Assembly: GCA_947561395.2 (NCBI GenBank)
Contig: OX387183.1
Location: forward strand, 41,646,901-41,710,900
Reading direction: 5' to 3'
DNA from: Buxus sempervirens
Taxonomy: Eukaryota > Streptophyta > Magnoliopsida > Buxales > Buxaceae
Length of the DNA: 64,000 bases
Both the position numbers and the translations under genes were made by a program. Of this stretch, positions 30,591 through 62,564 are shown in pieces. Position 1 is the first letter of the stretch; the number at the start of each line of letters is the position of its first letter. Below the pieces are notes generated by a model. It was given only the letters and a program-made list of their open reading frames with translations. It was not told the origin of the DNA and ran no database searches.

Positions 30591-30604
30591 GGGGGGGGGG
30601 GGGG
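30591..30604 (+). repeat. poly(G) tract, 14 bases
   Basis: Fourteen consecutive G residues within LTR A. Confidence 0.9.
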
Positions 30605-30727: not shown

Positions 30728-30874
30728 TTCCTTGTATCCGGCAACTCAGGCCGGATACAAGTACATTTCTTTGTATCCGGTGATCAATACCGGATACAAG
30801 CAGTGCTTAGTGTATCCGGTATTGTATACCGGATACCTTAAGGACCTTGTGTATCCGGCCTGATATACCGGATA
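30728..30874 (+). repeat. array of TATCCGG/CCGGATA dyads in LTR A
   Basis: Four hairpin-like units, each pairing GTATCCGG with CCGGATAC around a short spacer, lie about 170-315 bp upstream of the LTR's TATA box. Confidence 0.9.
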
Positions 30875-31042
30875 CGCAAGTTTTGCTCAAATTTAGGGTT
30901 TTCCGAGAGCTTTTCACTTTTACCATCATATCCCTCATTAAATGAGGGGAAATCTCGGAAATAGCCTTAGGGTTAAGGTTGGTGGGCTATAGACATTATG
31001 TTGTGTCTACCATTCTCACCAACCCTAACCCTAACCTTTGCC

Positions 31043-31050
31043 TATAAATA
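31043..31050 (+). promoter_or_regulatory. TATA box of LTR A
   Basis: TATAAATA, preceded by telobox-like AACCCTAACCCTAACC at 31021-31036. It probably marks the end of U3. Confidence 0.7.
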
Positions 31051-41650: not shown

Positions 41651-42524
41651 CACTTGTTTGAAAACCCATTCCCACTCGTTCAAACCCTCTCTGTCCACCG
41701 GCCTGTTTTCCAGCCATGATCGGAAAACACCCTCCTCCCTTGCTTTCATCCCTTTCTTTCCTCTCTACCCCTCACTCCCTTTTCCATTCTATCTCTTCCT
41801 TGAATGTCCCTGAACCCCCTCCTCCCCTGCTACCGTCCCCTCCCTTGAATGTCCCTGACCCTATCGTGGCTTCTGTTGGTCCGACTGGTGTAAGCACCCA
41901 AATTTTGATCAAACCAAAAAATAAAAAAAAGAAAAGAAAAGAAAATAAGAAAACAAAAAATGTGCTAAAAGACAGCAAAATAGCTCAAAACTCTAGCTGA
42001 AAAGTCAAACCCTAAGGGGGCAAAAGTTGACTTTTTGATCAAGTGCAATTTGGCCACCTTGTTTTATCTCAATGGATAGAGAATCCCGACACGGTTCCAA
42101 CGCAACTGAGTTTGCTGGAATCGGAGTCCGGATGAAGGTTCTGCAGGTCGGTCAAACTTGAGGGGGAGCCGAAATTGACTTTCTGCTAAACCCTAGAACA
42201 GCTGCCCAAACTTGTCCCAGTGGACAGGTCATCCTGACACGATTCCAATGTAACTGAGTTTGCTCGAATCGGAGTTCCAGATAATAAGTTATGAGCAAAA
42301 TAAGAAACCCTAAATACTGTCCACGTGGCAAAAACAGTAGAGAAAATAGCAGAAAAAGGTGTCTAGGGGCAAATCCGTAAATAATCAGGACATTCAAAAA
42401 TATCTGATGGCATATCTGTAATTATCTGGGGACGAATTTGTAAATATCAAGTTGATGTTAAAATAGCTCAGGGACTAATTTGCAATTACCAAGAAAATCT
42501 CCCCCATATGCTTAATTCCCCACC

Positions 42525-42960
42525 ACATCTTTCTTTCTCTCTCTCTCTCCTTCATAACTCATCCCCCACATGCTTAATTCCCCACCACATCTTTTCCCTC
42601 TCTCTCTCTCCTTCATAAATTCTTGTTCCCTATGTGCATCCCCATGCATCATGCATGCAAACACCTCTCTCTCTCTCTCTCTCTCTCTCCCCCTCATGAG
42701 TATCCATGCATGCATCATGCATGCACCTCTCTCTCTCTCTTCCCCCCATGATCACCCATGCATGCATCATGCATGCACCTCTCTCTCTCTCTCTTCCCCC
42801 CATGATCACCCATGCATGCACCTCTCTCTCTCTCCCTCATGATTAGTGTTCCCCATGTGCATCCCCTATGCATCATCCATACATGCACCACCTCATGCAT
42901 CCTTCTCTCTCTCTCTCTTCCAAACACCTTTTCCCCATGCATGCATCATATGCATTCACC
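42525..42960 (+). repeat. CT-rich and GCATGCATC repeat array in LTR C
   Basis: Runs of CT alternate with CATGCATGCATCATGCATGC words in units of about 50 bp (clear at 42700-42830). All reading frames through it are low-complexity and not genes. Confidence 0.9.
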
Positions 42961-44139
42961 CATCATCACCCACATAATAAAAGCCCCATGGAGCCCCATA
43001 CGTAAGGAGGAGAGCTCATTTTGTTGCTCTCCATTTTTCTTCTCCAAGCTCTCTCCCACAAGCCCCTCTCCATCTCCAAGCTCTCTCCCATTGACCACCT
43101 CTCCCACACTTGAACCTCCTTTAATCAAACCTCTCTTGATCCCCTCCTCTTCTCTTCTTCTTCATGTGGAGCTAGGAGAAGCTTGGTGGTGCAAGGAGCA
43201 AGGGGGTGTACGGCTGCTGTCCACACCACTAAGGACCACTACACACCTCCAACAAGGTTTCTAACCCTAAGGTGAGTCCCCTTGATGTATCTTGTTCCAC
43301 ATATATAAAGATGGTAGGATGATGAACATGTTTGCCATGAAATGCTTGTTCCTTTAGTTCTAGAATGTTTTGTTGTTCTATTTCTTTTCCTACTCTTCTT
43401 CCTCTTTGAAAAGAGAAGTTCCCATGGTAACGGGAAAGGTTCAAGAATGAAATAAGGGAGGAGGGTATTCGTAGGGTCCTAAGGTCACCTTTGAAGGCTC
43501 ATGCCCACGCTCCCTTCCTTGTTTATTTCTCACCATTTAAAGGAGGGTGTGTCCTCCTATCTCCATCTTGTGTACCCCATAAAGCCCCTCATACCCCTTC
43601 TTTTAATGGTATTTTTCTTCACTTGCATGCTTGTTGTTTTGTGATGTTTATAAGACATAAAGCATGTGTGCCTAGGATAGGACCTTTTTACTTGAATGCC
43701 TTAAAGTATGATCCCTATATCCCTTTTTTCCCCATAGTATTTGGGCTATTGTTTTGAGCCATCTTGCATGATCCCATCCCCCACTTGCATGCACAAACAC
43801 ACACACTTAATCCACTTCTTAGCAAGTTTCTAGTCTTGAGTATGTAGGAATGAGTTGCTGTTTTTTAGCATGTGTTTTAAATTATTTTCAGCATATATGC
43901 TTGTCCTTGCTTGAATATAGTTTGGCCGTTGAGACTTGGAGGAGGACCTTTCGGGTCCTTCACCTATTTTCTCTCATAAGGAAGGTGAGTAACCTCCACA
44001 AATAGCAAAGAGATATCTATGATCTCTTTATGTCATATGGATTCTCATCCATGAGTGGAGGAGCAAGGCCCCAAGCCTTGTTCTCTATTGTTTTGATCCA
44101 AAAAGCAACAAAAATGGCCTATTCAGGCTCAATGCCCCA

Positions 44140-45010
44140 ATCCCAGACAACTGTGGGCCCACGCAGGGGCCCACACAGCCCCTAGGAAGCCCATGAAACT
44201 ACCCCAATTGCAAAGCCCGAAAAAAGGCAATTTTGAGGTGATCTGACAACTCAGGTCGGATCACCTGGGGCTTGTGTGAAGCCGACAAGTAATGTCGGCT
44301 ACATGGCAGAAATGCCATTTTGGAATATCTTGTGATCCTTGCTGAATTTTTATGATACTTTCAAGCAAACCGAGCAAACCAACAGGGTTTCTGGGTCACC
44401 CAGAAACCCAACTTGGGACATGGACCACCGGTCCAATACGGTACATTAGTGGGCCTTCCAACAGGGCCCACCAAGTCCAATGAACCCTTTTGTGCATATA
44501 AATAAACAAGATAAGCTAATTAACCAACCCAGCCAGGTGGGCCAAATCCAATGCGGCCCACCCGAACCTGTTTTGTGAAATGGCATGTTTGAATTGTATG
44601 GTTTGGCCGAGACCCAGGGCTAGGGCCTATCGGGCCCGCCAAAGCCCACCAATCAACCCAGTGAGGGTTCAAAGCCCTAAACTCCAAGAACTTGGGCTTT
44701 CAAGCCTAAATTTGGACCATGGGCCCCAAGCCCTATGTCCAAATCACTTTTGCAAATTAAACCAAGATAATCTAAAAATATTTTGGCAACCGCCATGGGG
44801 GCCCACCCAAGGGCCCGCAAACCAATGCAGGCTCACTTGTTGCATGAAAATCACATAAGTCTCCAACTTAAATAAACTAAGTAAAATCAATTCATTTCAC
44901 CTAAGCCCACAGGGCCTCTCAGGTTAGACTGAGGCCCACCAAGGGATTCGTGGGCTTAACTAAGCCCACCAGGGACACAAGGGGCCTTCCAATGGGGCCC
45001 ACCCTAGCAG
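44140..45010 (+). repeat. GGCCCA-rich block of LTR C
   Basis: Dense GGGCCCA, GGCCCAC and TGGGCC words, including the conserved dyad GTGGGCCTTCCAACAGGGCC near 44449 and a variant at 44981. LTRs D, G and H have the same block. Confidence 0.8.
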
Positions 45011-46025
45011 ACTCAGATCATTTAAAACAAACAAGATAAAATCAATTAAAGGGACCCATATCACTCAGGCGGTCTCGGCAGACTGAACCGAATGGCATGC
45101 TGTACTAGGAATCGGGTGAGAACCAAAAGTGAGTTGACTCAAACCAGGGAACCCACGGGACCCGTCATCCGACGGGGTGGTCTGGGGTGTCCACGGACTT
45201 CCCCAGACCGCATCCGAGACCTTTCTCAGAATCTCAAAGCCGCAGACCAGCCTACTAGATAAACTTAGGCACCCAGGTGTCTGCCTGCACCCCATCAGGC
45301 AGTGGCGACTCCAATATCCCATTTCTACCCAGTGCGACACATCGGAAACAGGTGCGCACAATTGGTTTACTTCAACCAATGACCCATGACTGAAGATGGT
45401 AAGGTTAAAGCCAAAGTTGCTCTGCAGTATTTTCCCCCCAAGACTAAAGATGGTGTAAGCACCTTATTTTTGCGCTCCCAGAGGAGCTGGAAATGCAAAC
45501 CCTGGACGGAAAGTCAAACCCTAAGGGGTAAAAAGTTGACTTTTTGATCAAATGATAATTGGCCACCTTGCTTTATCACAATGGATAGAGGATCCCAACA
45601 CGGTTCCAACGCAACTGAGTTTGATGGAATCGGAGTCCGGATGAAGGATCTGTAGGCTGGTCAAACTTGAGGGGGAGCCAAAAGTTGACTTTCTGCTAAA
45701 CCCCGAGCTAGGAGCTTAGCCTTGCTTCTTTGGATAGAGGGCTCCGATACGGTTCTAACGCAACTGAGTTTGCTCAAATCAGAGTCCAGATGAAGAAGAT
45801 ATGAGCAGTTGAAGTTTCCGGGCAGCAACGCCGGAAACTGCACATGTGGCAAGAAACGCAGGAAAATATATCAAGGGGCAATCCGTAAATATCCAAAATT
45901 TGCAAAATATCTCAGGGATTAAACCAAAATTGCGCAGGGGGCAATCTGCAGTTATCTCAAATGTCAAATCAGTCAAATTGGTCAAATCCAGGGGGCAATC
46001 TGTAAATATAAAAAATATTGGTAGA

Positions 46026-46267
46026 ATAACCGAAATTAAATTCGGTTATACACAAATCATGTATAACCGAAATTCAATTTGGGTTCATAAAGTGAAATCA
46101 AAAATCGCCCGACAGATTCTCTCATTCCATACCTGATAGAAATTAATTGCTAATTGAGTGCAAAAGTAACCGAAATTAAATTTCGGTTACAAACAAAAGT
46201 GGCATAACCGAAATTAATTTTTGGTTATACTACAAATTGGTATAACCGAAAATTAATTTCGGTTATT
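46026..46267 (+). repeat. AACCGAAATT..AATTTCGGTT dyad array upstream of the LTR D TATA box
   Basis: Five hairpin-like copies of ATAACCGAAATTAA followed by its inverse, ending 12 bp before TATAAATA. Confidence 0.92.
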
Positions 46268-46278
46268 GGGTTTTTTGC

Positions 46279-46286
46279 TATAAATA
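46279..46286 (+). promoter_or_regulatory. TATA box of LTR D
   Basis: TATAAATA directly after the dyad array; downstream sequence is C-rich. Confidence 0.7.
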
Positions 46287-47632
46287 GCAACCCCAGCCAT
46301 TTGGCTTGGGGTTGCTGGATCCCGAAATTTCCCCCCCACCCCTCCCTGCTCGGACCTCCCTTCTCCACCCTCTCAACCTCTCCTAACACTCTAAATCCCT
46401 TCCCAAACCACCCCAAACCCTCCCTTACCTCTTCCTTCTTCTCTTGGGAGCCTTGGAGAAGTCTCGTGGAGACTTGGTGCTTGGAGAAGTTGCTGTCCAG
46501 GAGTTGTGCTACCTCAAAAAGCCTTAAGCTCACCTCCAAAGAGGATTTCAACCTTAAGGTATGATTCCCCACTCAGTTTTATTCCACATATGTAAATCTT
46601 AGCTCATTTGGAGCAAGTTGATTTCCAAGCATGCTATAACATGATATTTTACTCACCTTTGATGCTCCCCCATCTCTTCATCATCTTCCCATGGTTATGT
46701 GCTGGATTGTCATCCTTCTATGGTAAGAGGAGGGGTATCGATAGTTCCAAGAGAGGGTAGAGAGGATTTTTTGTTTGGGTTTACAAGAGATCATGCAACC
46801 ACCATACGGCCACCGTTTTTTGTTCATTGTCATTATTGTTGGTTCTATATCAAAAGGAGGAGCATGTTCCTCTTGATGAAATCCTATGTAACCTCGGCAT
46901 AAGCCCCCCCCCTCCTTTTCCCTTCTTTAGATACCATCTTCTTTTAGGTTTAGTGAAGTAATATTGGCATGATAAAATACCTGTGGTAGGTGACTAGTTG
47001 CTATCATATGCATGCATAAAGTCATCTTGTCAATCGCTAGGATTTAAAGCATGCATGCCATGATTTTATCCTTGTATGATTGCATTATTTTTCGACTGTT
47101 TTCATGCATTTTTAGTGAGGTTTTTGTCACTTTTTTTTTAAACCACTGTTTGTGACCATATGAAGCCGTTCCCTTTGCATGTATGTACCCATATGCATGC
47201 ATGTATTTCCGTTCATTAGAAGCATATGTTAGAAGAGGTTGTTTTTTTTTATTAAGTTGTGAGCATAGGAAAAGTGTTCCCCAAATCTTAGTAGGGCTTA
47301 ATCATGTACCATCTTGTTCGTTTCTGTTTTGATTTGAAGCATGCCTAGGTTAGCCATTTTACTTGATTTGTGTCCACATGTAAGCATGCAGATTTGTCTT
47401 GCAGCAAAGGAACCCAAACCAGGGATACTCAGATCCTTGATTGGCCCTTGCTTTGGTGTATGAAGGGGGGATGAACCCTTTGATCCCCTTTATATTGTTG
47501 ACCTTGAAAACCCCAAAAAGTGAGCCGGATGGCTCCATTTGAACCATTGTGGGCCCACAGAGGCCCTATACATGTTCACAAACCCTAAGAACCAGTTCTC
47601 TGCTAAAAAGTGAAAAAAGTGTTTTCTGCAGG

Positions 47633-47764
47633 GTAACCGAAATGATAGGCCGATTATGGGCATTTCTGGGCTTCACCGAAATCTAATTTCAGTTAAACCA
47701 AGAAATACAGTATGACTAAAATCCCATTTCGGTTATACTGTATTTCATGGTTGACCGAAATTCA
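47633..47764 (+). repeat. second set of AACCGAAAT dyads in LTR D
   Basis: GGTAACCGAAAT, CACCGAAATCTAATTTCAGT, CATTTCGGTTATAC and TTGACCGAAATTC, with an outer hairpin GAAATACAGTAT..ATACTGTATTTC at 47702-47747. It lies about 1.35-1.5 kb downstream of the TATA box. Confidence 0.85.
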
Positions 47765-49995
47765 ACTCCAAATTTTAATAAAAACTTGATTTTTGGTGTT
47801 TGCTGATTTGTGGTGTTGTCTAAGCCGAACTGGTTGAACCAATAGGGTTCCGGGTCAACCGGAAACCCAAAATGGTGCATGGGCTTCCAAGCCCAATGGG
47901 ATCCTTTGGTGGGCCTTCCAACAGGGCCCACCCAGCCCAAGATCACCTTTAGGGATAAACAAGATAATTAAAGTAAACTAAATGGGCCACACCTCACAAG
48001 GCCCACAAGAGCCAAAAAAGGAAGCATGTTGGCTGAGCATAGGAATGGTTTGGCCGTGACTGCGGGCACGGGCCTATCGGGCCCACTAAGCCCATCAACC
48101 CACCTGGGTAGGGTCCAATACCCTTCCCTTTGAACCATGGACCACCCGGTCCAAGTCTAGACTAATGGGCCCCAAGCCCAAGGTCTAGCCCGCTTTGGGA
48201 ATTAAAATGAGATAAAACCGAATAAATCATTGGCAACCACTGTGGACCCACCCAATGGGCCCATAAACAAATTCCGGCCCACCTTTGCATGAAAACCACT
48301 TAAATTCCAACTTGAACCCTAAAGTAAAATCAATTGAACTCACCAAAGCCCAAAGGGCCTCTCAGGATTAGACCAAGGCCCACCAGAGGCATGTGGGCTT
48401 AACCAAGCCCACTAGGGATACCATGGGCCTTCCAACGAGGCCCACCCAATCAGACTCGGTAATTAAGCAAGATAAAAGCAATTAAAGGGACCCACACCAC
48501 TCAGGTGATCTCGCTAGACTTAACCAAATTGCATGCTGGATTAGGAGTCGGGTGAGAAACCAAAATTGATTCAAACCAGGAGAACTCTATGGGACCCATT
48601 AGCCGACGAGGCGGACTGGGGTGTCTACAGACTTCCTCGGACCATAACCGAAAACCTACTTAGAATCTCAAGCCGCAGACCAGCCTAATAGACAAACTTA
48701 GGCACCCAGGTGTCTGCCTGCACCCCATTAGGCGGTGGCCACTCCAATTTCCCGTTTTACCCTCCCGGAGAAATGAATGATTCGCGTGCGCCCCACTGTG
48801 TACGATTTCCCATGCGCACAGATGGTAAGGTTCTGATTGAACCCCTTGCTTGTGTGATTCAAGACGGAGTTGATTGTTTGGTGGGCTACTTCATCGAAGG
48901 AGCTCTTCCTTTCTAAGTTGTCAAATCCATAACTCAAAAGCTATAGGTGAAGAAAGGCTTGTTGGATATGTTGTCTAATGCTGAAGGATTCTTTTTCTTC
49001 AAGTTTAGTTCTGCGCATGACAGAAACATGGTACTGGAAGGGATCTGTGAGACATGGAAAAAATCAATTTAATGATTTCCTAATCATCACACGGGATTAT
49101 ATAAAACAAAGAGTTGCCACCATTCAATTTAGGCGTGAATGGACACCAAAATATTAAATAAGCACAAAAGGCAAATTTTAGGGCAAAATATCCCTCTTAA
49201 AAAAAACAACCAGAGATGGGTAAGGGGATTAGGTTATGAACAGGGGAAGGTGTTAGGCACCCCTATTCATCCACACAAGGTGGTTGCCAGGCATTGTTCA
49301 TGTTAAATTAAAGGAAAAAGCTTGCTATAAAAATCACACAAAATCACAAAAAAAGCAAAAATATATGGTTTTTTCATATGAATATTCTGATTGATCCAGA
49401 ACTTTCAAATATGATCATACCATTCCTAGGGTTTCATGATCAAAATAAAATTGAGATAAAATCAAATAAAATCAATTTAAAGTGAAAATCCAAAAATCTG
49501 GCTTCAAGCTAAATTCTAGAAATCTAGAAAAATATGATTTTTATAAAATATTTCAAAATTGAACTTGAATAGTCTAGGACATAGATAAAGCCCAAATTTC
49601 ACATTAAATCAGAAAATAAAAACCAAAAATACCCACGTTGATGAAAAACACCAAAATGGGAGAATTTAGACCGTAGGGTCTTCTCTCAATAATGAAAAAC
49701 GATTTAAAAACCATATCATGAAACCCTAGAATTTATTTTCAGGCTTCTGGATTCAGATCTACCATATTGATCATGATAAATCCAAGATCCTAGCCTAAAA
49801 TCACAAAAATCACGAAAACAGTGCTGTAAGTGCAAAAGTGGCAAAAATCCAAATTTTAGCAAAAAGAGGGGATCTCATGCTATAAACATTATAGATTCAT
49901 GTTATTCATTCAGATATATCATAAAAAGCATTAAAACATGATCAGGATATTTAAAACGGCCACATCTCACAGATTAGAGCACATGGGGGTCTACC

Positions 49996-50260
49996 CTACG
50001 GATCCACCTATTCCCCTTTCCCCTAGTTCTCTCTTCACGTTTTACGGTTAGAGAGACTCTTGAGGTACTTAGAGATAGGTTTGGGTATACAAACACAATC
50101 ACAGGCCTTATTCTATGAGAAAAAGAAAAAAACAGATATGGGGTTCTATTCTAGGGATCCACCTGTTCCCCTTTCCCCTAGTTCTCTCTTCACGTTTTAC
50201 GGCTAGAGAGACTCTTGAGGTACTTAGAGACAAGTTCAGGAATACGAAAATAGATATGGC
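49996..50260 (-). repeat. tandem duplication in LTR E, period about 155 bp
   Basis: GGATCCACCTRTTCCCC..CTCTCTTCACGTTTTACGG..GAGACTCTTGAGGTACTTAGAGA occurs twice, from 49996 and from about 50151. Confidence 0.85.
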
Positions 50261-50442
50261 CTTATTCTACAGCAATAGAGATGATCCTATTACTTCTAGA
50301 ATTGAAGACAGAAAATAAAAAGGGATAGGGGACTTACCTGGATTGAGCAGGCAGGCAGCAGGAGTTCTTTCTTTTCTCTTGGAGCTTCTTAGAATTCCTT
50401 GGACACAAAATTTTGTGGCCCTAAGCTAGAGGAGAGAGCCTC

Positions 50443-50450
50443 TATTTATA
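50443..50450 (-). promoter_or_regulatory. TATA box of LTR E
   Basis: TATAAATA on the minus strand within CCTATAAATAGAGG, about 200 bp downstream of the ACCGTA dyads. Confidence 0.65.
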
Positions 50451-53400
50451 GGCAAGCACAGGGGCAAGGCTGGTCCAGAAGGATATATCTTGATCCTCAA
50501 GATAGAGTGAAAATTGGAGGTAATGCCCATCCATAGCCAACCAAGGTGGCTTCAGCGAATAAAATACGTAATTCGCTCATTTAAAGATATATTGGACTAA
50601 AGATAAAGCTCGGAAATCGAGAGAAGGACAAAACTCGCACGTGTCTTTAGTGACCGTAAATGCACTACGGTCCAACGGTGACCGTATAGTTTCCACGGGC
50701 GCGCCTGACCGTAGAGCGATCTTGGGCGCGACCGGCCCGTGAATGAAATACGGGCAATGCCTGTTTATTCAATTTTTATGCATTTTTGACCTGTTTTAAG
50801 CTCTAATTACATGTTTTTATTATTTTCTCATTTTGTAGTGCAATTTGGGGTGTCTACAAGATCCCATGGCTTTTATCAGGGAAACTATTCATCATTAAGG
50901 AATGAAATCCCTCTATGAAACTTGTTAAAGAGGAAATGGCTTCAATCCCTGTCTAGATTAAGCTATTGAAGGTCCCATTATCCCTGTCTATGTTATCTAG
51001 CAAGTGGAATTGGCAAACCACTATTTTTCTATTTTAATACAGAGAATCAATCAAGACTTGAGTTTGCTCGTATTTGTGTTGAGATTGATGCAGCTGCTGA
51101 GTTCCCCAAACGGATCTCGGTGAACATTGGTTCAAGTGAATACCCTGATATTCGCTGATTCAGGTTGAATATTAGGGTCTCCTTAAAAAATGTGGGAATT
51201 GTAATACTTTTGGTCACAATGTGCAAGTTTGTGCAAAGCAACTGCTAAGTTCTAATGTGGGGAAACCAGTTGAAGCTCTTGCACAAAAATCTCTGAAGGA
51301 GGAGGGATGGATTAAAGTTAAAGGTAAGCGTTCTGCTATTACCTCTAGTATAAGCCACTTGTTTGAATCTTTAGGAAATAATTTAGATGAGGATCTAGAT
51401 CAAGCTATTGGACCTAATTCTTCACCATCAGTGCAACTTGTTGTGGATTTGGGAGTGGCACTTGGTCCTAATCAAACTCATTGTGATGAGATCACTGCAT
51501 CCAAGAAATCCCAGGAACAACAATCAGATAGTGAGGAGATCACTGCTTTGAAGGAAACCCAAGAACAACAAACTCATCACAAGGAGGAAGTGATTTCAGC
51601 ATCTAGAAAGAAGAAGAAAAAGAAAGTTAAAATTGCAAAGGGTGAAAAGAGAAAGTGTTTGGTTCTTAAGAACCACCTAATTCATTGTAGAACCCAGAAT
51701 TTTGGTAAAATAATAACATAATTATAAACCTAAATATTAGAAGAAATAAAATAAATAAAATTGAAATATTTGAGGATAAATATTTAATCTAAGTATTTCG
51801 GAGATTGAAATTATAGTCCATAATCATATTATGAAGAGAAATAATGAGGAGATTAAATCTAGAAATTTTGGAATAAATCTAATGGTTAAATATGGTATGA
51901 TAAAGAAAAGGGTATTTTAGTCTTTTCCTAGTGGCCAATTATTAAATTAATTAAATAAGTAATTATTAGAATTGAACTAATTAATTAGACTTAAGTTAGA
52001 TTAAAATAGCTTAATTTATAGCTTAAAAGATGAGAAAAGGACATATTTGTAATTATACTTAATTAGGGGCCTTAAATTTGATGATAAGAGGAGTTTTGGG
52101 GTGTTTTATTAATATTTTAAAATAGGGGAAATAATTAACAAGAAAATTTATTAAATTGGGAGTTTCTTTTGTATGAATTCTTAAAAGGAGTCCTAGTGGA
52201 GTTAGTTGAAAAGTTTCCTGATCTAATTAAAACTTCTATTTGGGTGAGTCTATATAAGGAAAGCATTAGGGAAGATTTGGGGTTTCCATTACTTCAAACA
52301 TGTGGAGAAAAAGAGGAGAGAAAAGTGGTGTACACGATTGAGAAAATAGGGAGAAAAAAATAGAAAGAGAATAAGAGACTTTAGAGAAAAAGATAAGTTG
52401 CAGAAAATTTTGACTAGCAACCATCAAACGGCAATCTAGAGACGATCAACTGTTGGATCGGCCTCAAATTTGGAGGTTTTGTTCTTAGCTCGTGGTTCTT
52501 CAATCTGAACGGTGGAGATTTTATTTGAAGATTCCTAGAGTGGTGCAAAAATTTCAGAAACTTGGATGTACCTTGAGGTTTATTGGAAAAGAAGGATTTT
52601 GCGTTCTTAAGGCAATTAGTAACACCTTTTTTGTTTAATTGATGCATGGTTTTTATATTCGATTGTTTAAGAGTGATTTGAAAAGTATGTGTGATGATTT
52701 AGAAGCAAAACCCTGTATTTATTTTTATTTATTCATAGGTTTAAAAGATTTCATGCAAAGTTCATAAAACTGTCAAGTATGAGTAAAGTATGGATTTTTA
52801 GTTGATTTCGTATGAGATTTATTGTAAAACTATGTTTTGATGTATTTAGAATGATCTAGTATGTTTGGAGGATGATATTACATGTTTTCGAAGTGATTTG
52901 AGAAGTTGGATTGGTTTTATTTGAATTTAGTTTGAAAATTTGCAAAATTCTAGATTTATACGGATACCTGGCATCCGGCTCGGCGCCAGGCCAGGCCCCA
53001 TAATATTTAGGCAGGTCACCCAAAGCCGCTCGAGCGCTATTAATGGTGCTCCACTTGCAATTTTTTTTTTTTAGAAATTTAGAACTCAAAAACCAGAATT
53101 TGAATTAAGATAGATGCTAGGGATGTGGCTCGAGCGTCATGTTGAGCGTCGAACCCAGATTTGTGTATTTTGACCTTTTGACTTAGTTTTTGATTTTAAA
53201 ATGATTTTTATGGAATTCCAACTCATGTACCAACTAGATTAGGGTATTTTGAGAGTGTTTGCTTTGGTCTAAGATTTATTTGGTCTTTTATAAAGAATTT
53301 GGGTATGTTACACTGAAATGAATTTTATTTAGGTTTATCGTTCCAAATTGTTTTCTTTTCAACTTGGTTTGATTTTATTGTTTCCTATACTTGCATTTAA

Positions 53401-54599
53401 CCTATCTAAAGATGTTTTCATGGTTATTATGGCAGAATTGTGATTATTTTCCTCTGTGTACATATGAGTGGTGAATTTCTCATTCATATAGCTTGGTTTT
53501 GAGACTTGAATTTGTTCCATGTATCTTGGAGTTGACTTGTGGATTATTGAGGATGTTTTGGTATTTATAATAACATGTTTCAGTATTTGATTGCCTTGTG
53601 TCTAGTTGGCATAGTTGGTTATGGATCCATAGTTTAGTTAGATAGTGAAGTAGGTCGTTCTTTATTTAGTTAACTCCATGGTCCATTTATGCATTTTAGT
53701 CCGTGTATCTCGGCAATCCTCTTCCTTGATTCATGTATCTTGGTGGGAAGATGAAAATTGTAGAAATCATCTTCCTTGATCCATGTATCACAGTGGGAAG
53801 TTATGGTTGTACATGCCAACCTTAATCCCGGTATTTGGGTGGGTACTCTTCTATGTTGTAGTTTGTGTATCTCAGTCAGTATATGTCGGGAGGTGGCATT
53901 TGGAATTGGGTTTTTAGCTTCTCAAAGATCTCTTACTTCACGTGTCTTGTGATATCACAATTGTGTGGTGTGTTGATTGTATTATTTGAGTATTCATTAT
54001 TGGTTTTACTTTGGAAATATATGGTTTTGGATTCATGTTATATTTGGTATTTGGATTTATCATTGAAACTGTGCGCACGTCGATCCATGGCACACGGATG
54101 CAAGAGGGAGAGTGGGAGTCGCTACTGCTTGATGGGGTGCAGGCAGACACTTGGATGCCTAAAGGGATGTCTATTAGGTGGTTTGCGCATCGAGATTCCA
54201 GGAAAGGGTCTTGTTACGGTTCGGGGAAGTTCGTAGACACCTCGATCCGCTCTGTCAAAAGACGGGTCCCATGGGTTATCCTGGTTAGCCTTTAGAGAGT
54301 CAACTCATTTTTACCTCACCCATCTTAAGCCAGCATGCCTACTTGATTTGGTCTTTAGTGGGGACCACATGTATGGTGTAGGTCCCATTTATGTTGATTT
54401 TTATTTTTTAGACCATGTGATAGTCTGAGTGGTGGGCCCCGTTGGAAGGCCCACGGAATGCCATGTTGGGCTTAGGGCAAGCCCAAAGTCCCAATTTGGG
54501 TATGGGGACCCTGTTGGTATTAAGACTTTTTTTTAAAGATTGATTGTAAACATTTAAGCACAAAAATGTGAAATTGTAAACTTTCTGTACAATAACTGT

Positions 54600-54695
54600 A
54601 GGGTTCATAAAGTTCTGGCAAAATCGTATAGATCATATGGTTCTGGCAAAACCGCATAAATCATATGGTCAGGCTAGAACCGCCCTGAGTTTACG
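54600..54695 (-). repeat. CCGTAT-type dyads in LTR G, downstream set
   Basis: GGTTCTGGCAAAACCGCATA, CAAAATCGTATAGATCATAT and TAGAACCG words, matching the motif found near 59630-60075 in the same LTR. Confidence 0.65.
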
Positions 54696-56862
54696 ATTTG
54701 CATTAAAAATACAATTTCAGGGATTTTTGGGATCCCCCTTTTCATGTGGGACTGATGTAGGGCGGGGGTCATTCGACCAACCCACAAAGGCTCCCAAGTT
54801 GTTTTTAAACCATTATTAATCCTACTTTACTAAGTGATTAAGCCAAATATTGCAAGGAGAAGGGCGTAGGGCTCCTTCTCCTTCTTCTGAGAAGAGATTC
54901 TCAGGTGCTTGAAATGGAGAGGAGATTCTCCACTTCTGGTTCAGCAACAAGCTCAACCATATCAAGTATGAGAGGTTGAAACAGGGGCTCGAAAGGCTTT
55001 TTGCTAGTAGTCATACGGCCAAACCATGATCATTCAAGTATAGCAAGCAACATGACATAAAAGAGCTAAGATGGAGTACTTAAACACATGCTAAGAATGA
55101 TGGTGGGTGTGCTTCGAACAAATGTACATGAAGAGTTAGAAATCTAGCCTATAGACAAGTACCATGGCACATGTTTCAAATGGAGTAGTTGTGGTGCTTC
55201 ATGCTTATGTGTTCATGAAAGGCAAGAAATTAGACTCTAAATAATGGCCATGGCATGTCACAAATAAGGGGCTTGTGTATGCTTTATGGGGTGGGTATTA
55301 GAGATCCAAAGCATTCTAAGAAAGATGAAATCAAGGCATGCAGGTGATACTTAAGAGCAGCAAGTAACATTCATGCTTTCACACAACTAATCAAGCTAGC
55401 AAGGTGTGTGCGCGTCGGAAATGCGGCACGGGAAATTCGGAGTCACCACCGCCTGATGGGGTGCAGGCGGACACCTGGGTGCCTAAACTTGTCTATTAGG
55501 GCTTTTGGTTTGCGGCTTTCAGATTCTAAGTAGGGTCTCGGTTGTGGTCCGGGGAAGTCCGTAGACACCCCGGTCCACCCCGTCGGGTGACGGGTCCCTT
55601 AGGTTTATCCTGGTTTGAGTCAGCTTATTTTGGTCTCACCCGATTCCTAATCCGATATGCAGTTTGGTTAAGTCTGGCGGGACCACCTGAGTGGTGTGGG
55701 TCCCGTTAATTGCTTTTATCTTGATTAATTAGGTAATCTGAGTCTGGTTGGGTGGGCCCCGTTGGAAGGCCCACGGTGTCCTTGGAGGGCTTTGGTCAAG
55801 CCCATGTACCCTTGTAGGCCTCAGTCTAAGCCTGAGAGGCCCTTAGGATTTTTGGTTCAATGAGTTGATTTTATTTTGGAGTTCAAGTTGGATTATTAAG
55901 TGATTTATATGCAAAGCGGGCCGGTTTGGTTTGTGGGCCCATTGGGTGGGCCGCACAGGGTGGCCTGGTAATTTATTGGATTTATCTTACTTAAGTTTCC
56001 AAAAAATGGGTGGGACACTGGGATTGGGGCCCGTAGTCCTGATTAGGGTTTGAAAGCCCAGGTTATGTGAGGTTAGGGTTTTGAACCCTTACTCGGTTGG
56101 TTCGTGGGCTTTGGCGGGCCCGATAGGCCCTTGCCCTTAGTCTCGGCCAAACCACGCATTTCATGCATCAATTTCACAAGTCCGGTTTGGGTGGACCGCC
56201 TCAGGTTTGGCCCGCCCGGTTTAATCGGTTAATTTTGCTTATCTTGATTAAGTTGCATGCATACATGTTTATTGGGCCGGGTGGGCCCCGTTGGAAGGCC
56301 CACTGGAAATCAAGTTGGACCGGGGGTCCAAGTCCCATGTTGGGTTTCTGGGTGACCCGGAAACCCTGTTGGTTCATCTGGTTCGGTTCGGAAATGGCAC
56401 TTACATCCAGTGATAATCATCGAAAAATATACAAGTTTGACACTTATTAAGGAGAGACTGGCTCATTATGCTGGGTCCAAGGGGAGGTACCCAAGGGATA
56501 TGCCAAAATCTTCCAATTGAGTTAAAAAAGGATTTAATGTAAATCCATTAAACCACAAAGGATAAACAAGAGGATTCGAATCTCCCATAGAGAGATTTGA
56601 GTGTAGATAAGGCTCAAAAATCGAAAAAGGATAAATTCGCTCAAAAAACCTGTTTCTTCTCGTACCAAGGAATGAGTTGGACGCGCGGTGAACAACGGGG
56701 TTGGGGGGCGAAGCCCCCCGCGGTACGGTAAAGGGCATTTTCGGGATTTCTAAAAAATATGGCAATTCGGCCTTTTTTAGGGGTATGCGCCAACCTCAAG
56801 CACTAGGCGCAAGGTCGACGAGGTGGGCGGACCGAAAAACCAAAAAAAATGATCCGTGGGCG

Positions 56863-57100
56863 AAGTGGGCGCACCCAAAAACGAAGTGGGCGCGAGCTCG
56901 GCGCACCCAAAAAATCAAGTGGGCGCGAGCTCGGTGCACCCAAAAATCAAGTGGGCGCGAGCTCGGCGCATCCAAAAATCAAGTGAGCGCGAGCTGAGCG
57001 CATCCAAAATTAAGTGAGCGCGAGCTGAGCGCATCCAAATTTAAGTGAGCGCGAGCTGAGCGCATCCAAAAAGGGAAGTGGGCGCGAGCTCGGCGGATGC
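56863..57100 (-). repeat. GC-rich minisatellite, period about 32 bp
   Basis: Units begin with AAGTGGGCGCGAGCTCGG or AAGTGAGCGCGAGCTGAG at about 56884, 56917, 56949, 56981, 57012, 57043 and 57076. Each contains a self-complementary GAGCTC or GAGCT core. Confidence 0.92.
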
Positions 57101-57831
57101 CCAGAAAAACGATCCGCTCACCCTTTTTTGGGTGCGCTGAGCACGTAGAGCTCGGCGCATACCCCTACGAAACCCGATAGTCTGGTTTTTTTTGCCCGAA
57201 CTCCATTTTTAATGGTTTTTAAGCTCTGTAATCACTCTCTGGGGATCCTTAGAACCCTAGAAGGCCTCTAAGCACACTTGGAAATTAATCTAAGCTTCTA
57301 TAACATCACAACCGAGATCCCCTCGCACACAACCCTAATCCGAAAACCAACCACTCAGGACATGAATAATGAAGAAGGGAACAGGGGGGGGGGGGTTTAT
57401 CGGGATACAAGAGATGCAAACATCAAGGAGAACATGCTCCCCCTTCGAATCACACAAGCACTGTTACTAAACGAAATAACAGAAAAGAAAATATAGCAAT
57501 GAACTTATTTATTTTGGACCAGAGGCCATCGGGAACATCACCTGGGTTTCAATCTTTTGTAGGGTGTGCTGGACCTTGGAGCTCGAGCAACTGTCGGAGC
57601 AGCACCTCTCCACGCCCGTAGCAAGCTCTTCTTCGGGTTAGATGAGGAAGAAGAGGAAGAGAAGGGGCGGGGTCTCGAACCAGGTAGAGTGGGGAAGAGG
57701 GAAATGAAATCCGGCAGAGTCGTGCCAACCCAGAAAGAACCAAGCTCGAAAACCTCCAACCAAAATTTTCGAACCCGAAAATGATCCCACCCGAAAATGA
57801 TCCAACCCTTTGCACGATATCTCGCGCGGCC

Positions 57832-57838
57832 TTATATA
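57832..57838 (-). promoter_or_regulatory. TATA-like box of LTR H
   Basis: TATATAA on the minus strand within CCTATATAAGG, just downstream of GAGCTGAGCGCAT-type dyads at 57841-57970. Confidence 0.6.
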
Positions 57839-58204
57839 GGCGAGGAAAAAGGGATCCGCTCACCTAAAAAAAGGGATCCACTCAGCTTGAGCTGAGCGCA
57901 TACCCGCTTGCCACGTCCGCGCGAGCGGCAAAATGATGAAAAATCATTTAATGCTGCCGCTCGCCGGTCGAGAAATCCGGCTTTTTTAGATTTAGTCCCT
58001 GGCAATTTTTGGTTTAATCCGATATTCTCAGATTTTTACGGATTTAGTCCCTGGGATATTTCGTACATTTGGATATTTACGGATTTGATCCTCGAGATAT
58101 TTTCCTGCGCAACTCGCCACGTGTGCAGCTTTTTGCCACGTGCGAAGTTTGCCGGTTTTGCTGCTTGGAAACTTTGTCAGCTCATATTTTCTTCATCCGG
58201 GCTC

Positions 58205-58860
58205 CGATCTGGGCAAACTCAGTTGCGTTAGAATCGTATCGGAGCCCTCCATCCCATGACCTAGGGGTAGGCCTCTGGATCAGATTTTAGCAGAAAGTCA
58301 ACTTTTGGCTCTGCTCCAGTTTGACCGCCCGCAGAACCTTCATTTGGACCCCGATTCCTGTAAACTCAGTTGCGTTGAAACCGTGTTGAGATTCTCTATC
58401 CAATGACATAGGGGTAGGCCTCTGGATCAGATTTTAGCAGAATGTCAACTTTTGGCTCTGCTCAAGTTTGACCGTCCGCAGAACCTTCATCCGGACCCCG
58501 ATTCTTGCAAATTCAGTTGCATTGGAACCACGTCGAGATTCTCTATCCAATGACCTAGGGGTAGGCCTCTGGATCGGATTTTAGCAGAAAGTCAACTTTT
58601 GGCTCTGCTCAAGTTTGAACGTCCGCAGAACCTTCATCCGGACCCCGATTCCTGCAAACTCAGTTGCGTTGGAACCGCGTCAAGATTCTCTATCCAATGA
58701 CCTAGGGGTAGGCCTCTTGATCGGATTTTAATAGAAAGTCAATTTTTGGCTCTGCTCAAGTTTGACCGCCCGCAGAACCTTCATCCGGACCCCGATTCCT
58801 GCAAACTCAGTTGCGTTGGAATCGTGTCGAGATTCTCTATCCAATGGCATAAAGCGAGGT
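58205..58860 (-). repeat. tandem repeat, period about 147 bp, 4-5 copies, in LTR H
   Basis: CAAACTCAGTTGCGTT recurs at about 58215, 58361, 58508, 58656 and 58802 with the same surroundings (CAGAACCTTCATCCGGACCC, ATTCTCTATCCAATGAC, AGTCAACTTTTGGCTCTGCT). LTRs C and D carry two or three related units. Confidence 0.9.
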
Positions 58861-59628
58861 GGCCAATTTTCACTTGATCAAAAAGTCAACTTTTCACCCC
58901 TTAGGGTTTGACTTTCTGTCCAGGGTTTGAATTTTTGGTTTTTCTGGGAGCGCAAAAATGAGGTGCTTACACAAGGTTATGAAATTGAGAACACACCGAT
59001 CTATGCAACTAATGATTACTCCAAGAGAATGAAAATGAACTAATTAAATTAAGAAAGGAAGTGGGGGGGGGGGATTAAGGTTACATTCCTCCAGATTTGA
59101 GGGGAGAGAAATAAATTACATTTTCTCAATACTTAATCGACTTTAAAGGATACTAAAGCCTTCATGAACCTCCCTTATTTGTTCGCCCATCATACCATGC
59201 CTTACCTCATATGGATTGCATTTTTGAAGAGTGGATACCACCATAGGAAGGGGAGAAAAGAAAACAGGGGAATCCAAGACCATGGAAGCTAGAGCATGCT
59301 CCTTATTTCATTAGGAAACAATACATATTACACTAAATAGAGAGAAGAAAATTTACCTTGTTGAAAGAAGATCCTTGAGGACACTTTGAGCTCCCTTGAA
59401 GACTTTGGCAGCAGCTAGAGATCCTTCCTTCCTTCTCCAAGAGAAGCCTTGAGGTTGGTCTTGGTGAGGATGATGCGAGGGAGAGAGCTTGTGAGTTTTT
59501 TGAGATAGTTGGAAGTGGTTTTGAGGTGTTTAATGACTTGGAGATGAAGAAGAAGGTGATTCGGAGGTATTTGTTGCAGGGAGAACAGTAGAAAATCACC
59601 AACCAACCTTCTGTGTTCGGATTTTGAA

Positions 59629-60075
59629 TTATATGGTTTGGTCAAAACCGTATGTATTATACGGTTTGGTCAAAACCATATAGTCCATACGGTTTGATTG
59701 TGTCTGTATATATTATACGGACACGGACGATCTTTTCAACATTAAATGGGGGACAAACTTTGACGCATGCAGTGCGCTAAAGGCGACCATACATATAGTA
59801 CGGACGCTTTTAGTCCCGCTGCACGTCGTGATTGGCTGTTCAAGCGGGCACCACAAAAATCGATCATATACTACATACGGTTGCCAATGCTGCACGTCGT
59901 GATTGGCTGTTCAAGCGGGCACTGCAAAAATCGATCATATACTACATACGGTTGCTTTGCAACCGTATGTAGTATACGGTCGCGGCAAATATTTCAGATT
60001 TGCCTTTTTCTCTCCTTAGCTGGCTTGAGTTGACGGCTGAGGTGACTCAGCCGAAGCAACCGTATGTAGTATACG
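59629..60075 (-). repeat. ACCGTATGTAGTATACGGT dyads in LTR G, promoter-side set
   Basis: Many copies of CCGTATGTAGTATACGG and variants such as ACGGTTTGGTCAAAACCGT. Two local duplications are embedded: period about 71 bp (59820 and 59891, from TGCACGTCGTGATTGGC) and period about 97 bp (59959 and 60056, from GCAACCGTATG). Confidence 0.92.
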
Positions 60076-60736
60076 GTTGCGGCAAATATTTCAGATTTGC
60101 CTTTTTCTCTCCTTAGCTGGCTTGAGTTGACGGCTGAGGTGACTCAGCCGCCCACTCCGGACAAATCGGGTTTTTCCGATTTTTTATTTTCTATTTATCT
60201 TAATTAATTTAATTAAGATATTTTAAGCTTTTACTAATACGTCCTTTGTTCTGTCTTTTCCCTGTTTTTGCCTTTTAGAACTTAAATTTTCCATTTATCA
60301 GGTGAGGCCTGCACACTTGCCAAGTGACGGGTCCTTCTGTGCTTAATTACCATTTTGCCCCTGGGGGTTGTTTTGCTCATATCTTCTCCATCCGGACTCC
60401 GATTCATGCAAACTTAATTGTGTTGGAACTGTGTCGGGATTCTCTATCCATTGGGATAGGGTATGTCAATCAATTCGGACTCAGGCAGAAAGTAACTTTT
60501 TGCTCCTTAGGGTTTTGACCTGTCTTTTAGGGTTATGATTTTTGGCTTTTTAGAGGGGTGCAAAAATGAAGTGCTTATAGAAACCTCATGAAAAATGATT
60601 TAAAACTCTATGGACTGTTTTCTCTCATACATGTTATTTCTTGGTAAGATTTTATATCTCACCCTTGTTTTTAATATTTGTTTTCAGATATTATTTAAAA
60701 GGACGTGCAAGTCGGGGTAAGTAATATAGAGGGTAC

Positions 60737-62564
60737 TGTGAGACATGGGAAAAAAATCATCTTTTCATTGAATGACTTCCTCAATAATCACACGGGATTG
60801 ATTAAAACAAAGAGTCACCACCATTCAATTTAGGTGTGAATGGACACCAAAATATCAAATAAGCTCAAAAATGCAAATTTAGGGTAAAAATAACCCTCCT
60901 AAAAAAACAACCAGAGATGGGTAAGGGGATTAGGTTATGAACAGGGGAAGGTGTTAGGCACCCCTATTCATCCACACAAGGTGGTTGCCAGGTATTGTTC
61001 ATGTTAAAATAAAGGAAAAAAAAGGCTTGCTATAAAAATCATAAAAAATCACAAAAAGACAAAAGTGTATGGTTTTTTCATACGAATAGCCTGATTGATC
61101 CAGAACTTTCAAATATGATCATACCATTCCTAGGGTTTCATGATCAAAATAAAATTGAGATAAAATCAAATAATATCAATCCAAAGTGAAAAATCCAAAA
61201 ATCTGGCTTCAAGTCAAATTCTAGAAATCTAGAAAAATATGATTTTTATGAAATATTGCAAAATTGAACTTGAACATTCCAGGACATAGATATAGCCCAA
61301 ATTTCACCTTAAATCAAAAAATCAAAACAAAAAATACCCACATTGATGAAGAACATCAAAAGGGGAGAACTTAGACCGTAGGTTCTTCTCTCAAACATGA
61401 AAAACGGTTCAAAAATAACATCATGAAACCCTAGAATTTACTTTCAGGCTTCTGAATCCAGATCTATCATATTGATCACGATAAATCCAAGATCTTAGCC
61501 TAAAATCACAAAAATCACGAAAACAGTGCTGTAGGTGCCAAAGTGTGAAAAATCCAAATTTTAGAAAAAAAATGGGGATCTCATGCTATAATCACCATGA
61601 ACTCATAGGATTAATCCAGATTCAAGATAAAATCATTAAAACATGATCAGGATATCAAAAATAGCCATATCTCACAGATTAGAGCACATGGGGGCCTACC
61701 CTACGGATCCACCTGTTCTCTTTTCCCCTAGCTCTCTCTTCACGTTTTACGGCCAGAGAGGATTCTTGAGGTACTTAGAGATAGGTTTGGGTACACAAAC
61801 ACAATCAAAGGCCTTATTCTAGAAAAAAGGAGAAAAACAGATATGGGGTTCTATTCTAGGGATCCACCTGTTCCCCTTTCCCCTAGCTCTCTCTTCACGT
61901 TTTACGGCTAGAGAGACTCTTGAGGTACTTAGAGACAAGTTTAGGAATACAAGTACAAAAGATGGCCTTATTCTACAGCAATGAAGAAGATCCTATTACT
62001 TCTAGAATTGAAGACAGAAAATAAAAGGGAAAATGGACTTACCTGGATTGAGCAGGCAGAGCAACAGGGATTCCTCTCTTCTCTTGGAGCTTCTTGGACT
62101 TCAAATTTTCATGGCCTTTTGCTTGAGGAGAAGCCCTCTATTTATAGGCAAACCCAGGGGTATGGTTGGTCCAAGGTTTGGCAAGATAGAGTTTCAGATT
62201 GAGTTAAACACAAGGATAATGCCCATCCATGGCCAACAAGGATAAATGAGATAATTCGAACAGATAAATAAGAGAATTCGCTTATCCAAGAGAGATATTT
62301 GGGTGCAGATAAGGCTCAAAAATCAAAAAGGTAAAATTCGCACAAAGACCCCCGTGCCTGTATATATATTACGGTCGCGCCCTACCCGTATTATTGATAC
62401 GGGCACGCCGTGACCGTATATCAACTGCGGGTATGACCAGACCGTAAACAAAATACGGTCATGACCAGTTTGGCCAGATTTTACACTTTTTTGACCTGTT
62501 TCAAATCCCAAATTAATATTTTCAATTATTTTCTCATTTTGTAGTGCAATTTGGGGTGTCTACA
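60737..62564 (-). mobile_element. solo LTR I (family 1)
   Basis: On the plus strand it starts TGTGAGACATGGG and ends GGGTGTCTACA. GGTAC lies at 60732-60736 and 62565-62569, an exact 5-bp duplication within LTR F. It is a close relative of LTR E (49046-50858), including the internal tandem duplication (61700-61960). Length 1828 bp. Confidence 0.93.
62139..62146 (-). promoter_or_regulatory. TATA box of LTR I
   Basis: TATAAATA on the minus strand, about 200 bp downstream of the dyad region 62340-62465 (CCGTATTATTGATACGGG, ACCGTATATC, CCGTAAACAAAATACGG). Confidence 0.65.

What the first reader, a model, noticed from the sequence alone, without database searches (positions are those of the whole stretch)
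46026..60075. Family-3 LTRs each carry their own dyad 'word', present on both sides of the TATA box
LTR D uses AACCGAAATT dyads upstream (46026-46267) and again downstream (47633-47764). LTR G uses CCGTAT dyads upstream (59629-60075) and downstream (54600-54695, about 1.4 kb from TATA once LTR H is removed). LTR H uses GAGCTGAGCGCAT words upstream (57841-57970) and downstream (56770-57165). The words differ between copies, yet the two sites in one copy match. Something seems to keep the two sites in step while the word changes. Candidates are gene conversion, selection as protein or small-RNA sites, or hairpin-mediated copying during reverse transcription.
Basis: partly seen in the sequence, partly recalled or inferred. 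Interest (0 to 1): 0.8.

Follow-up and report, generated by a model that had tools for sequence, protein, structure and literature searches.

The report
Paired CCG-N11-CGG words in plant LTRs
Large retrotransposon LTRs in this plant-like genome carry arrays of short mirror-image DNA words in two places, usually the same word in both within a lineage, and many of the words share a hidden fixed-spacing grammar that looks like a protein-binding code.

Summary
In LTRs D, G and H the word array upstream of the promoter recurs 0.7-1.5 kb downstream (z 7.6, 12.9, 3.2; H only equals its best shuffle). Among 45 copies with both sites in this 676-Mb, plant-like genome, the match belongs to lineages, not copies: lineage pairing ranks 1 of 720 permutations, but a copy's own partner scores no better than a lineage-mate's. 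One lineage (17 copies) breaks the rule, so the sites are not kept in strict step.

The words are not arbitrary. Three of six upstream classes, and LTRs A, F1 and F2 of another family, share CCG-N11-CGG: 21 in the window against 1.4 expected; genome-wide 163,369 against 40,613 for N12. Arrays mostly repeat every 28 or 38-39 bp by word class, in both slots. Fixed spacing favours a dimeric DNA-binding protein over RNA pairing or gene conversion; no protein is known. Closest known: Sirevirus RM boxes, element-specific palindromes with a CGG-CCG core, also in two clusters (PMC2829016). This is a new variant of that kind.

The parts
45454..48820 (+). LTR D, family 3, apparently a solo LTR, flanked by GATGG/GATGG
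   Evidence: TGTAAGCACC start and ...GCGCACA end with the same 5 bases on both sides
46026..46267 (+). Slot 1 of LTR D: AACCGAAAT...ATTTCGGTT dyads; CCG-N11-CGG at 46170 and 46246; dyad centres about -25, -63, -101, -204 from TATA
46279..46286 (+). TATA box of LTR D (TATAAATA)
47633..47764 (+). Slot 2 of LTR D: AACCGAAAT-type dyads, just before the conserved U5; none is an exact CCG-N11-CGG
   Evidence: (z 7.6)
41889..45360 (+). LTR C, family 3; the counterexample (slot 1 CATGCATGCAT/(CT)n around 42640-42960, slot 2 CCGAC dyads around 44225-44305)
44282..44298 (+). CCG-N11-CGG in slot 2 of LTR C (CCGACAAGTAATGTCGG)
54070..60579 (-). LTR G, family 3, interrupted by LTR H
   Evidence: termini
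59629..60075 (-). Slot 1 of LTR G: CCGTAT dyads (CCG-N11-CGG at 59648, 59963, 60060), 28-bp period nearest the promoter; no clear TATA consensus was seen in this copy
54600..54695 (-). Slot 2 of LTR G: diverged CCGTAT/CCGCAT dyads, 28-bp period; none is an exact CCG-N11-CGG
   Evidence: (z 12.9)
55405..58971 (-). LTR H, family 3, nested in G; its start is 98-99% identical to the other 39 places scored
57841..57970 (-). Slot 1 of LTR H: GTATGCGCTCAGCTC / GAGCTGAG-type dyads; the lineage does not show the CCG-N11-CGG skeleton (one such site, 57964-57980, overlaps the edge)
56770..57165 (-). Slot 2 of LTR H: 31-32 bp repeats with GGATGCGCTCAGCTCGCGCTCACTT and terminal dyads
   Evidence: (z 3.2)
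30738..30871 (+). LTR A (30158-32951, another family): four CCG-N11-CGG words, 39 bp apart, upstream of its TATA; no slot-2 partner found
50654..50753 (-). LTR F1 (49046-50858, 84% identical to F2, related to A): three CCG-N11-CGG words upstream of its TATA; no slot-2 partner found
62386..62458 (-). LTR F2 (60737-62564): three CCG-N11-CGG words, 28 bp apart, upstream of its TATA; aligns with the slot-1 array of LTR G

Best explanation
Family-3 LTRs have two regulatory slots. Slot 1 lies upstream of the TATA box, mainly within about 130 bp with further words to about -250. Slot 2 usually lies 0.7-1.5 kb further on, just before the conserved U5. Each holds an array of short inverted repeats. For three word classes (AACCGAAA, CCGTAT/CCGCAT, TATCCGAC/TAGCCGAC) the repeat is two half-sites around CCG that face each other as CCG-N11-CGG, and arrays mostly run at 28 or 38-39 bp (SHOWN). 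I infer that these are binding sites of a dimeric sequence-specific DNA-binding protein: CCG is the invariant contact and the neighbouring bases are a lineage-specific flavour. A lineage's two slots match because the slot1-TATA-leader-slot2 segment is inherited as a linked block and the same factor reads both slots (INFERRED). New words reach a lineage by recombination with other LTRs, since similar word blocks occur in LTRs of another family; template switching is the likely route (INFERRED). Whether the factor is a host transcription factor or encoded by the element is not known.
For: Fixed spacing: CCG-N11-CGG 21 in the window vs 1.40 expected, largest of 100 shuffles 4, 16 of the 21 inside word arrays; N10 2 vs 1.17. 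In chosen site groups 87 vs shuffle mean 1.7, max 5 of 50. Genome-wide N11 163,369 vs N12 40,613. Palindromy covers CCG and roughly 2-4 bases on each side, weaker in F, and falls off at the centre. Period goes with word class: 28 bp for CCGTAT in slot 1, in slot 2 of L052 and L072, and in F2; 38-39 bp for AACCG, TATCC and GCCGAC words, in both slots and in LTR A. Lineage-level match rank 1 of 720. Genome-wide pairs of identical 23-mers at 1047-1306 bp (7 pairs among 100 listed places) and of AACCG 23-mers at 1211-1418 bp. Block inheritance: in the LTR start AACCG copies are as far from each other (0.119) as from GC copies (0.124); in U5 they are closer to each other (0.158 vs 0.318) (the D set was chosen by similarity in that very start). 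Words shared between families: LTR A slot 1 vs TATCCGAC slot 1 27.2 (null 9.2, sd 1.4); F2 vs CCGTAT slot 1 15.7 (null 8.7, sd 1.2).
Against: GC and H lineages match between slots but lack the N11 skeleton, and slot 1 of the C lineage has no CCG-CGG pair. Slot 2 of D, G and L087 holds only diverged, inexact copies of the skeleton. LTRs A, F1 and F2 show the skeleton in slot 1 but no slot-2 partner, so slot 2 is not generally needed. F1 aligns little with the CCGTAT class (10.1, null 8.5). Genome-wide counts are counts of repeat copies, not independent events; 5 of 21 window sites lie outside the arrays, one of them a U5 sequence seen again elsewhere; the tool's own reversed-pattern control, of other composition, gives 126,325 (N11) and 105,655 (N12). 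No binding protein, expression or chromatin data. Fixed spacing could be kept by descent.
Confidence: 0.5

Rival explanations
1. History only: the word was copied from one slot to the other once per lineage (template switching or hairpin-mediated copying during reverse transcription) and then simply inherited; no selection holds the slots together, and palindromes are kept neat by quasi-palindrome correction (recalled mechanism).
For: No copy-level co-variation. The C lineage, L055, L052/L072 and L012 tolerate mismatch or loss. In the GC lineage slot 2 is an inverted relative of slot 1 over about 30-60 bp in the best copies, loops included.
Against: In the AACCG and TATCCGAC lineages arms match between slots while loops differ. 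The spacing of 11 and the word-linked period recur in different families and slots. At least three unlike word classes show the slot match.
Confidence: 0.27
2. RNA pairing: slot 2 is the end of R beside the poly(A) site, slot 1 the end of U3; in the 3' LTR transcript they pair over the R loop and make polyadenylation 3'-LTR-specific, as a Rex-response-element-like structure does in HTLV-1 (recalled; one search gave a listing only).
For: The better own match is inverted in 8 of 10 GC copies (means 16.8 inverted, 10.4 direct) and in 7 of 8 CCGTAT copies, there by a small margin (13.5 vs 12.4). Poly(A)-like hexamers are denser from -80 to +20 of the U5 start (1.25 vs 0.32 per 100 bp; at least one in 26 of 40 copies).
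Against: No bias in AACCG (2 of 4) or H (2 of 6); TATCCGAC slots match better directly (24.5 vs 21.0); all 7 TATCCGGC(AACTCAG) pairs are direct. A fixed CCG-to-CGG distance is not needed for RNA pairing. LTRs A and F have slot 1 only. The C lineage lacks the match and still amplified.
Confidence: 0.12
3. Ongoing gene conversion keeps the two sites alike within each copy.
For: Sites match within many copies.
Against: Own scores do not significantly exceed lineage-mate scores in any of the five lineages tested (GC leans that way, 7 of 10, p 0.16); letter-level disagreement in L052 and L072.
Confidence: 0.05
4. An element-encoded anti-silencing factor reads the words (VANC-like), and word turnover reflects co-evolution with that factor or escape from host small RNAs.
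For: Lineage-specific, repeated motifs in non-coding zones, also in another family, as reported for VANC21 and VANC6 (PMC5735166, passages).
Against: Hardly tested: only 0.3-2.0 kb after nine primer-binding sites was in hand, and of 7 open frames printed one (66 aa of it) was searched in Pfam, with no significant match. VANC21 motifs are described as arrayed in one orientation; these are dyads.
Confidence: 0.12

Closest known systems
Sirevirus RM boxes (Ty1/copia; PMC2829016, sections 9 and 10 and passages read)
   Same: Palindromic, element-specific words with a CGG/CCG core, many copies in an array just upstream of the LTR TATA box; in ENV-bearing elements the same word forms a second cluster elsewhere (upstream of ENV).
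   Different: There the core is mostly CGG..CCG with short, variable spacing; here CCG..CGG at a fixed 11. The second cluster here is inside the same LTR. The primer-binding site differs (TGGCGACTCCGCTGGGGA here, TATCAGAGC there).
Maize Sirevirus LTR palindromes (Bousios 2016, not read; described in passages of PMC10760457)
   Same: Clusters of palindromes in the LTR cis-region; the same palindrome was also abundant in another TE type (Helitrons).
   Different: Discussed there as small-RNA targets; no two-slot lineage matching or fixed N11 spacing in the passages seen.
VANDAL transposons and VANC proteins (PMC5735166, passages read)
   Same: Family-specific short motifs, multiplied as tandem repeats in several non-coding regions of one element and also present in an unrelated TE.
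   Different: Not LTR retrotransposons; motifs arrayed in one orientation, not dyads; a cognate protein is known there and not here.
Retrosat2, a rice element with LTRs over 3.2 kb (PMC3485330, passages read)
   Same: Very long LTR with a long R (2023 bp) after a TATA box.
   Different: No dyad words in the passages seen; different LTR ends; its TATA lies about 230 bp into the LTR.

Membership tests
Sirevirus (Ty1/copia) | Primer-binding site of the TATCAGAGC type | tested here: not met
   TGGCGACTCCGCTGGGGA (up to 2 mismatches) follows LTR ends in L009, L014, L018, L022, L033 and L040 (also L056, L058, L089): 9 of 86 sequences scanned, most of which do not reach an LTR end; Sirevirus PBS as given in PMC2829016
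Sirevirus (Ty1/copia) | Palindromic RM boxes with CGG-CCG core upstream of a TATA box | tested here: met
   Works alike rather than the same motif: dyads with CCG..CGG upstream of TATA in AACCG, CCGTAT and TATCCGAC lineages and LTRs A, F1, F2; not in GC, H or CATG slot 1
Sirevirus (Ty1/copia) | Copia-type polyprotein | not tested
   Internal regions were not fetched beyond short stretches after some LTRs
OTA/Tat clade of Ty3/gypsy (Ogre-like) | Primer-binding site of a non-Met tRNA such as tRNA-Arg | tested here: inconclusive
   PBS sequence found; its match to tRNA-Arg(ACG) is recalled; non-chromovirus use of tRNA-Arg among others is in PMC6317226 passages
OTA/Tat clade of Ty3/gypsy (Ogre-like) | Gypsy RT with additional RNase H (aRH) | not tested
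VANDAL/VANC anti-silencing system | Cognate element-encoded DNA-binding anti-silencing protein | not tested
   No coding region of family 3 was available apart from short frames; one of 7 was searched in Pfam
HTLV-like structured R controlling polyadenylation | Slot 1 and slot 2 complementary in the RNA in a fixed sense | tested here: inconclusive
   Better inverted in 8 of 10 GC and 7 of 8 CCGTAT copies; 2 of 4 AACCG, 2 of 6 H; direct in all 7 TATCCGGC pairs

The most novel reading that the evidence does not exclude
This genome holds a shared recognition code, CCG-N11-CGG with lineage-specific flanking letters and array period, used by more than one LTR retrotransposon family and, in one of them, at two positions of the LTR. 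A dimeric factor with evolving specificity (host or element-encoded) reads it, and retrotransposon lineages switch between code words by recombination, so that the word of both slots changes together.
Probability: 0.3. Interest if true: 0.85.

Novelty: new variant of a known kind. Interest (0 to 1): 0.6.

Why it matters
If the words are protein sites, the genome contains about 120,000 more CCG-N11-CGG places than the N12 count, many of them presumably spread by retrotransposons: a natural library of one binding grammar with many flavours. It makes testable how LTR promoters change their regulator, whether retrotransposon lineages avoid or exploit each other's regulators, and why a second copy of the promoter array is kept in the same LTR. 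It also extends the Sirevirus palindrome story to elements with another primer-binding site.

Tried and rejected
Copy-level in-step evolution: not supported, own-pair scores do not exceed lineage-mate scores. Simple chance: rejected, though H in the window only equals its best shuffle. Universal inverted (RNA-pairing) orientation: not supported. A common skeleton for all words: rejected for GC, H and CATG slot 1. Slot-2 partner in LTRs A, F1, F2: none (11.4 vs null 11.4; 9.4 vs 9.8; 9.3 vs 9.9). Fold energy of slot 1: strong in AACCG, TATCCGAC, CCGTAT, H and CATG (means -4.0 to -7.9), not in GC (-0.9; 43 control leaders -0.7). Family by protein domain: one 66-aa stretch after a 5' LTR gave nothing significant in Pfam. 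Paper searches whose listings showed nothing on a CCG-N11-CGG code in plant retrotransposons; the library lacks most subscription papers, and I saw titles and abstract starts only, apart from the papers cited.

Rows dropped: of 81 stretches fetched plus 4 window LTRs, 45 copies had both slots and entered the own-pair test: 14 of 20 D-query, 15 of 20 C-query, 7 of 22 G-query, 5 of 13 H-query, and the 4 window LTRs. The rest were cut by nested insertions, ended before a slot or could not be placed; L012 reaches U5 but has no slot-2 words. G set: 8 more had slot 1 only, 7 could not be placed. H set: 2 more had slot 1 only. Of 6 stretches fetched for slot 2 of the TATCCGAC lineage only L087 reached it, so no single copy of that lineage has both slots in hand: L019 and L026 give slot 1, L087 slot 2, and L087's own slot 1 is known only as an 84% hit to that of L026. 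Lineages in the D-query set were named from slot-1 words, not blindly; the C, G and H sets were chosen by flank similarity. GC and H words are related, so the six lineages are not fully independent. The pooled count of 87 uses the groups where the skeleton was first seen by eye; searches are unselected. An N10 genome-wide control was asked and not answered.
Full report
WHAT WAS CHECKED. The window lies in a genome of 676.5 Mb held without a name; that it is a plant is my inference from its sequence.

MORE COPIES. I searched the genome with the LTR starts of D, C, H and G (1971-4978 first-look candidates each, 40 scored) and fetched 81 stretches, six of them for slot 2 of one lineage found by a fifth search. 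The 20 D-query copies are 91-94% identical to D over the first 231 bp, yet carry four upstream word classes by eye: GC-rich (13), AACCGAAA (4), TATCCGAC (2), CATGCATG (1). The slots are in regular places. Slot 1 is mainly at about -15 to -130 from TATA, with dyad centres often at -24/-52/-80 (CCGTAT) or -25/-64/-103 (AACCG). Slot 2 is just before the conserved U5.

IN STEP BY LINEAGE, NOT BY COPY. Mean slot1 x slot2 scores with self pairs left out: AACCG 29.8, TATCCGAC 24.5 (two slot-1 copies against one slot-2 copy, L087, none with both slots in hand), GC 15.7, H 14.7, CCGTAT 13.5, CATG 11.0. Cross-lineage values lie between 9.1 and 12.6, apart from GC-up x H-down (13.6) and TATCCGAC-up x CATG-down (19.2). 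The diagonal is the best of 720 permutations of six lineages, of which GC and H are related. Within lineages a copy's own partner is not significantly better than its lineage-mates'; singly, 13 of 24 copies outside the C lineage score above every downstream site of other lineages. The C lineage as a group (17 copies) stays at the cross level: its slot 2 belongs to the TATCCGAC/TAGCCGAC class while slot 1 is CATGCATG plus CT runs. In the CCGTAT lineage L055 has another slot-2 word, and L052 and L072 have CCGCAT upstream but CCGTAT downstream. By LTR start, the nearest neighbour has the same word class in 35 of 43 copies, but not in 4 of 5 AACCG and 2 of 2 TATCCGAC copies; by U5 in 29 of 32 (chance about 0.35). 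The D set was chosen by similarity in that start, which favours mixing there. The middle of the LTR, words included, is not alignable between D, C, H and the GC copy L010 apart from short pieces. My reading is a linked block [slot 1, TATA, leader, slot 2, U5] recombining with other LTR starts.

GENOME-WIDE PAIRS. The 23-mer TAACCGAAATNNNATTTCGGTTA has 849 places. Among the 50 listed on one chromosome, gaps below 8 kb fall at 38-78, 141 and 211 bp, at 1211-1418 bp (8 gaps from 5 places), and above 4.1 kb. The 23-mer TATCCGGCAACTCAGGYCGGATA occurs 1419 + 1411 times (reversed control 0). Among 100 listed places, 7 pairs lie 1047-1306 bp apart, all on the same strand; which LTR family they belong to was not seen.

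THE HIDDEN GRAMMAR. The words of the AACCG, CCGTAT, TATCCGAC and C-slot-2 classes, and of LTRs A, F1 and F2, share CCG, exactly eleven bases, CGG. In the window there are 21 such sites against 1.40 expected (largest of 100 shuffles 4), 16 of them in word arrays; with ten bases, 2 against 1.17. Genome-wide: 163,369 for eleven, 40,613 for twelve. These are counts of repeat copies, and not all are words: one of the five non-array window sites is a U5 sequence whose like appears in the genome list. The tool's reversed-pattern controls, of other composition, give 126,325 and 105,655. Palindromy covers CCG and a few bases on each side and fades at the centre. Arrays mostly have a class-specific period: 28 bp for CCGTAT in slot 1, in slot 2 of L052 and L072 and in F2; 38-39 bp for AACCG, TATCC and GCCGAC words, in both slots and in LTR A; some spacings are 55-56, 77-78 or above 100. 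GC, H and CATG slot-1 words do not show the skeleton, and slot 2 of D, G and L087 has only inexact copies.

SHARED BETWEEN FAMILIES. By blastn at E 0.01, LTR A shares with D, C, H, L026 and L019 only short stray matches and its word block, which aligns with the TATCCGAC lineage's slot 1 (27.2, null 9.2, sd 1.4), spacers included. It also contains the loop AACTCAG found in slot 2 of most C-lineage copies and of L087. F2's array aligns with the CCGTAT lineage (15.7, null 8.7, sd 1.2); F1's hardly does (10.1, null 8.5). A and F are related to each other (69-77% in the long blocks) but carry different words, and none of the three has a slot-2 partner.

MECHANISM. Shown: two slots, lineage-level match, fixed spacing, word-linked period, sharing between families. 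Inferred: a dimeric DNA-binding protein with CCG contacts reads the words. A fixed half-site distance with varying arm letters and non-palindromic centres is what such a protein would impose, and is not needed for RNA hairpins. The match of slots then follows from block inheritance plus one reader. A purely historical copy between slots remains possible, and the better inverted match in 8 of 10 GC and 7 of 8 CCGTAT copies (the latter by a small margin) hints at copying or RNA pairing there, against direct pairs of the TATCC class. Poly(A)-like hexamers are denser around the U5 start (1.25 vs 0.32 per 100 bp), so slot 2 may be the end of R; that is not tested by RNA data.

KNOWN RELATIVES. Sirevirus RM boxes are the nearest precedent: element-specific palindromes with a CGG-CCG core, upstream of TATA and, in ENV-bearing elements, in a second cluster upstream of ENV (PMC2829016, sections 9 and 10 read; passages). 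The present elements have the primer-binding sequence TGGCGACTCCGCTGGGGA after the LTR, which I recall as complementary to tRNA-Arg(ACG) and which is not the Sirevirus one. Non-chromovirus gypsy elements use tRNA-Arg among others (PMC6317226, passages). Gypsy membership is likely but untested. VANC motifs are a functional analogue (PMC5735166, passages). The 2016 Sirevirus palindrome paper was not read; it is described in passages of PMC10760457.

VERDICT. Real and interesting, but lineage-level rather than copy-level. New variant of a known kind.

Noticed in passing
30158-32951 and L026, L087, L029: A similar word block, and even the same 7-nt loop AACTCAG, occurs in slot 1 of LTR A and in slots of family-3 lineages although the LTRs otherwise share only stray matches.
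   Followed up: partly
60737-62564 (F2) and 55405-58971 (H): 85 bp at 83.5% identity are shared between F2 (LTR positions 219-302, next to its words) and H (2327-2411, after its slot 2), another sign of block exchange between LTR families.
   Followed up: no
47841-47870 and the U5 start of other family-3 LTRs: U5 begins with a palindrome of the type AGGGTTTCCGGGTCACCCGGAAACCC, seen by eye in several lineages around the anchor.
   Followed up: no
58191-58846: U3 of LTR H carries a 147-bp tandem repeat, about 4.5 copies; a related unit is present in fewer copies in D.
   Followed up: no
46556-46563 in D, about 280 bp after TATA, and similar places in other family-3 LTRs: A splice-donor-like AAGGTATG/AAGGTGAG is conserved in position by eye, so slot 2 could lie in a 5' UTR intron.
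   Followed up: no
C1:46768-46840 and 47714-47758 of G000: CCGTA words at 28-bp spacing in two arrays 946 bp apart, an apparent two-slot element that is not among the places listed by the family-3 queries.
   Followed up: no
27411-28322 (minus): An open frame of 303 aa looks like a plant syntaxin (recalled from its sequence; not searched).
   Followed up: no
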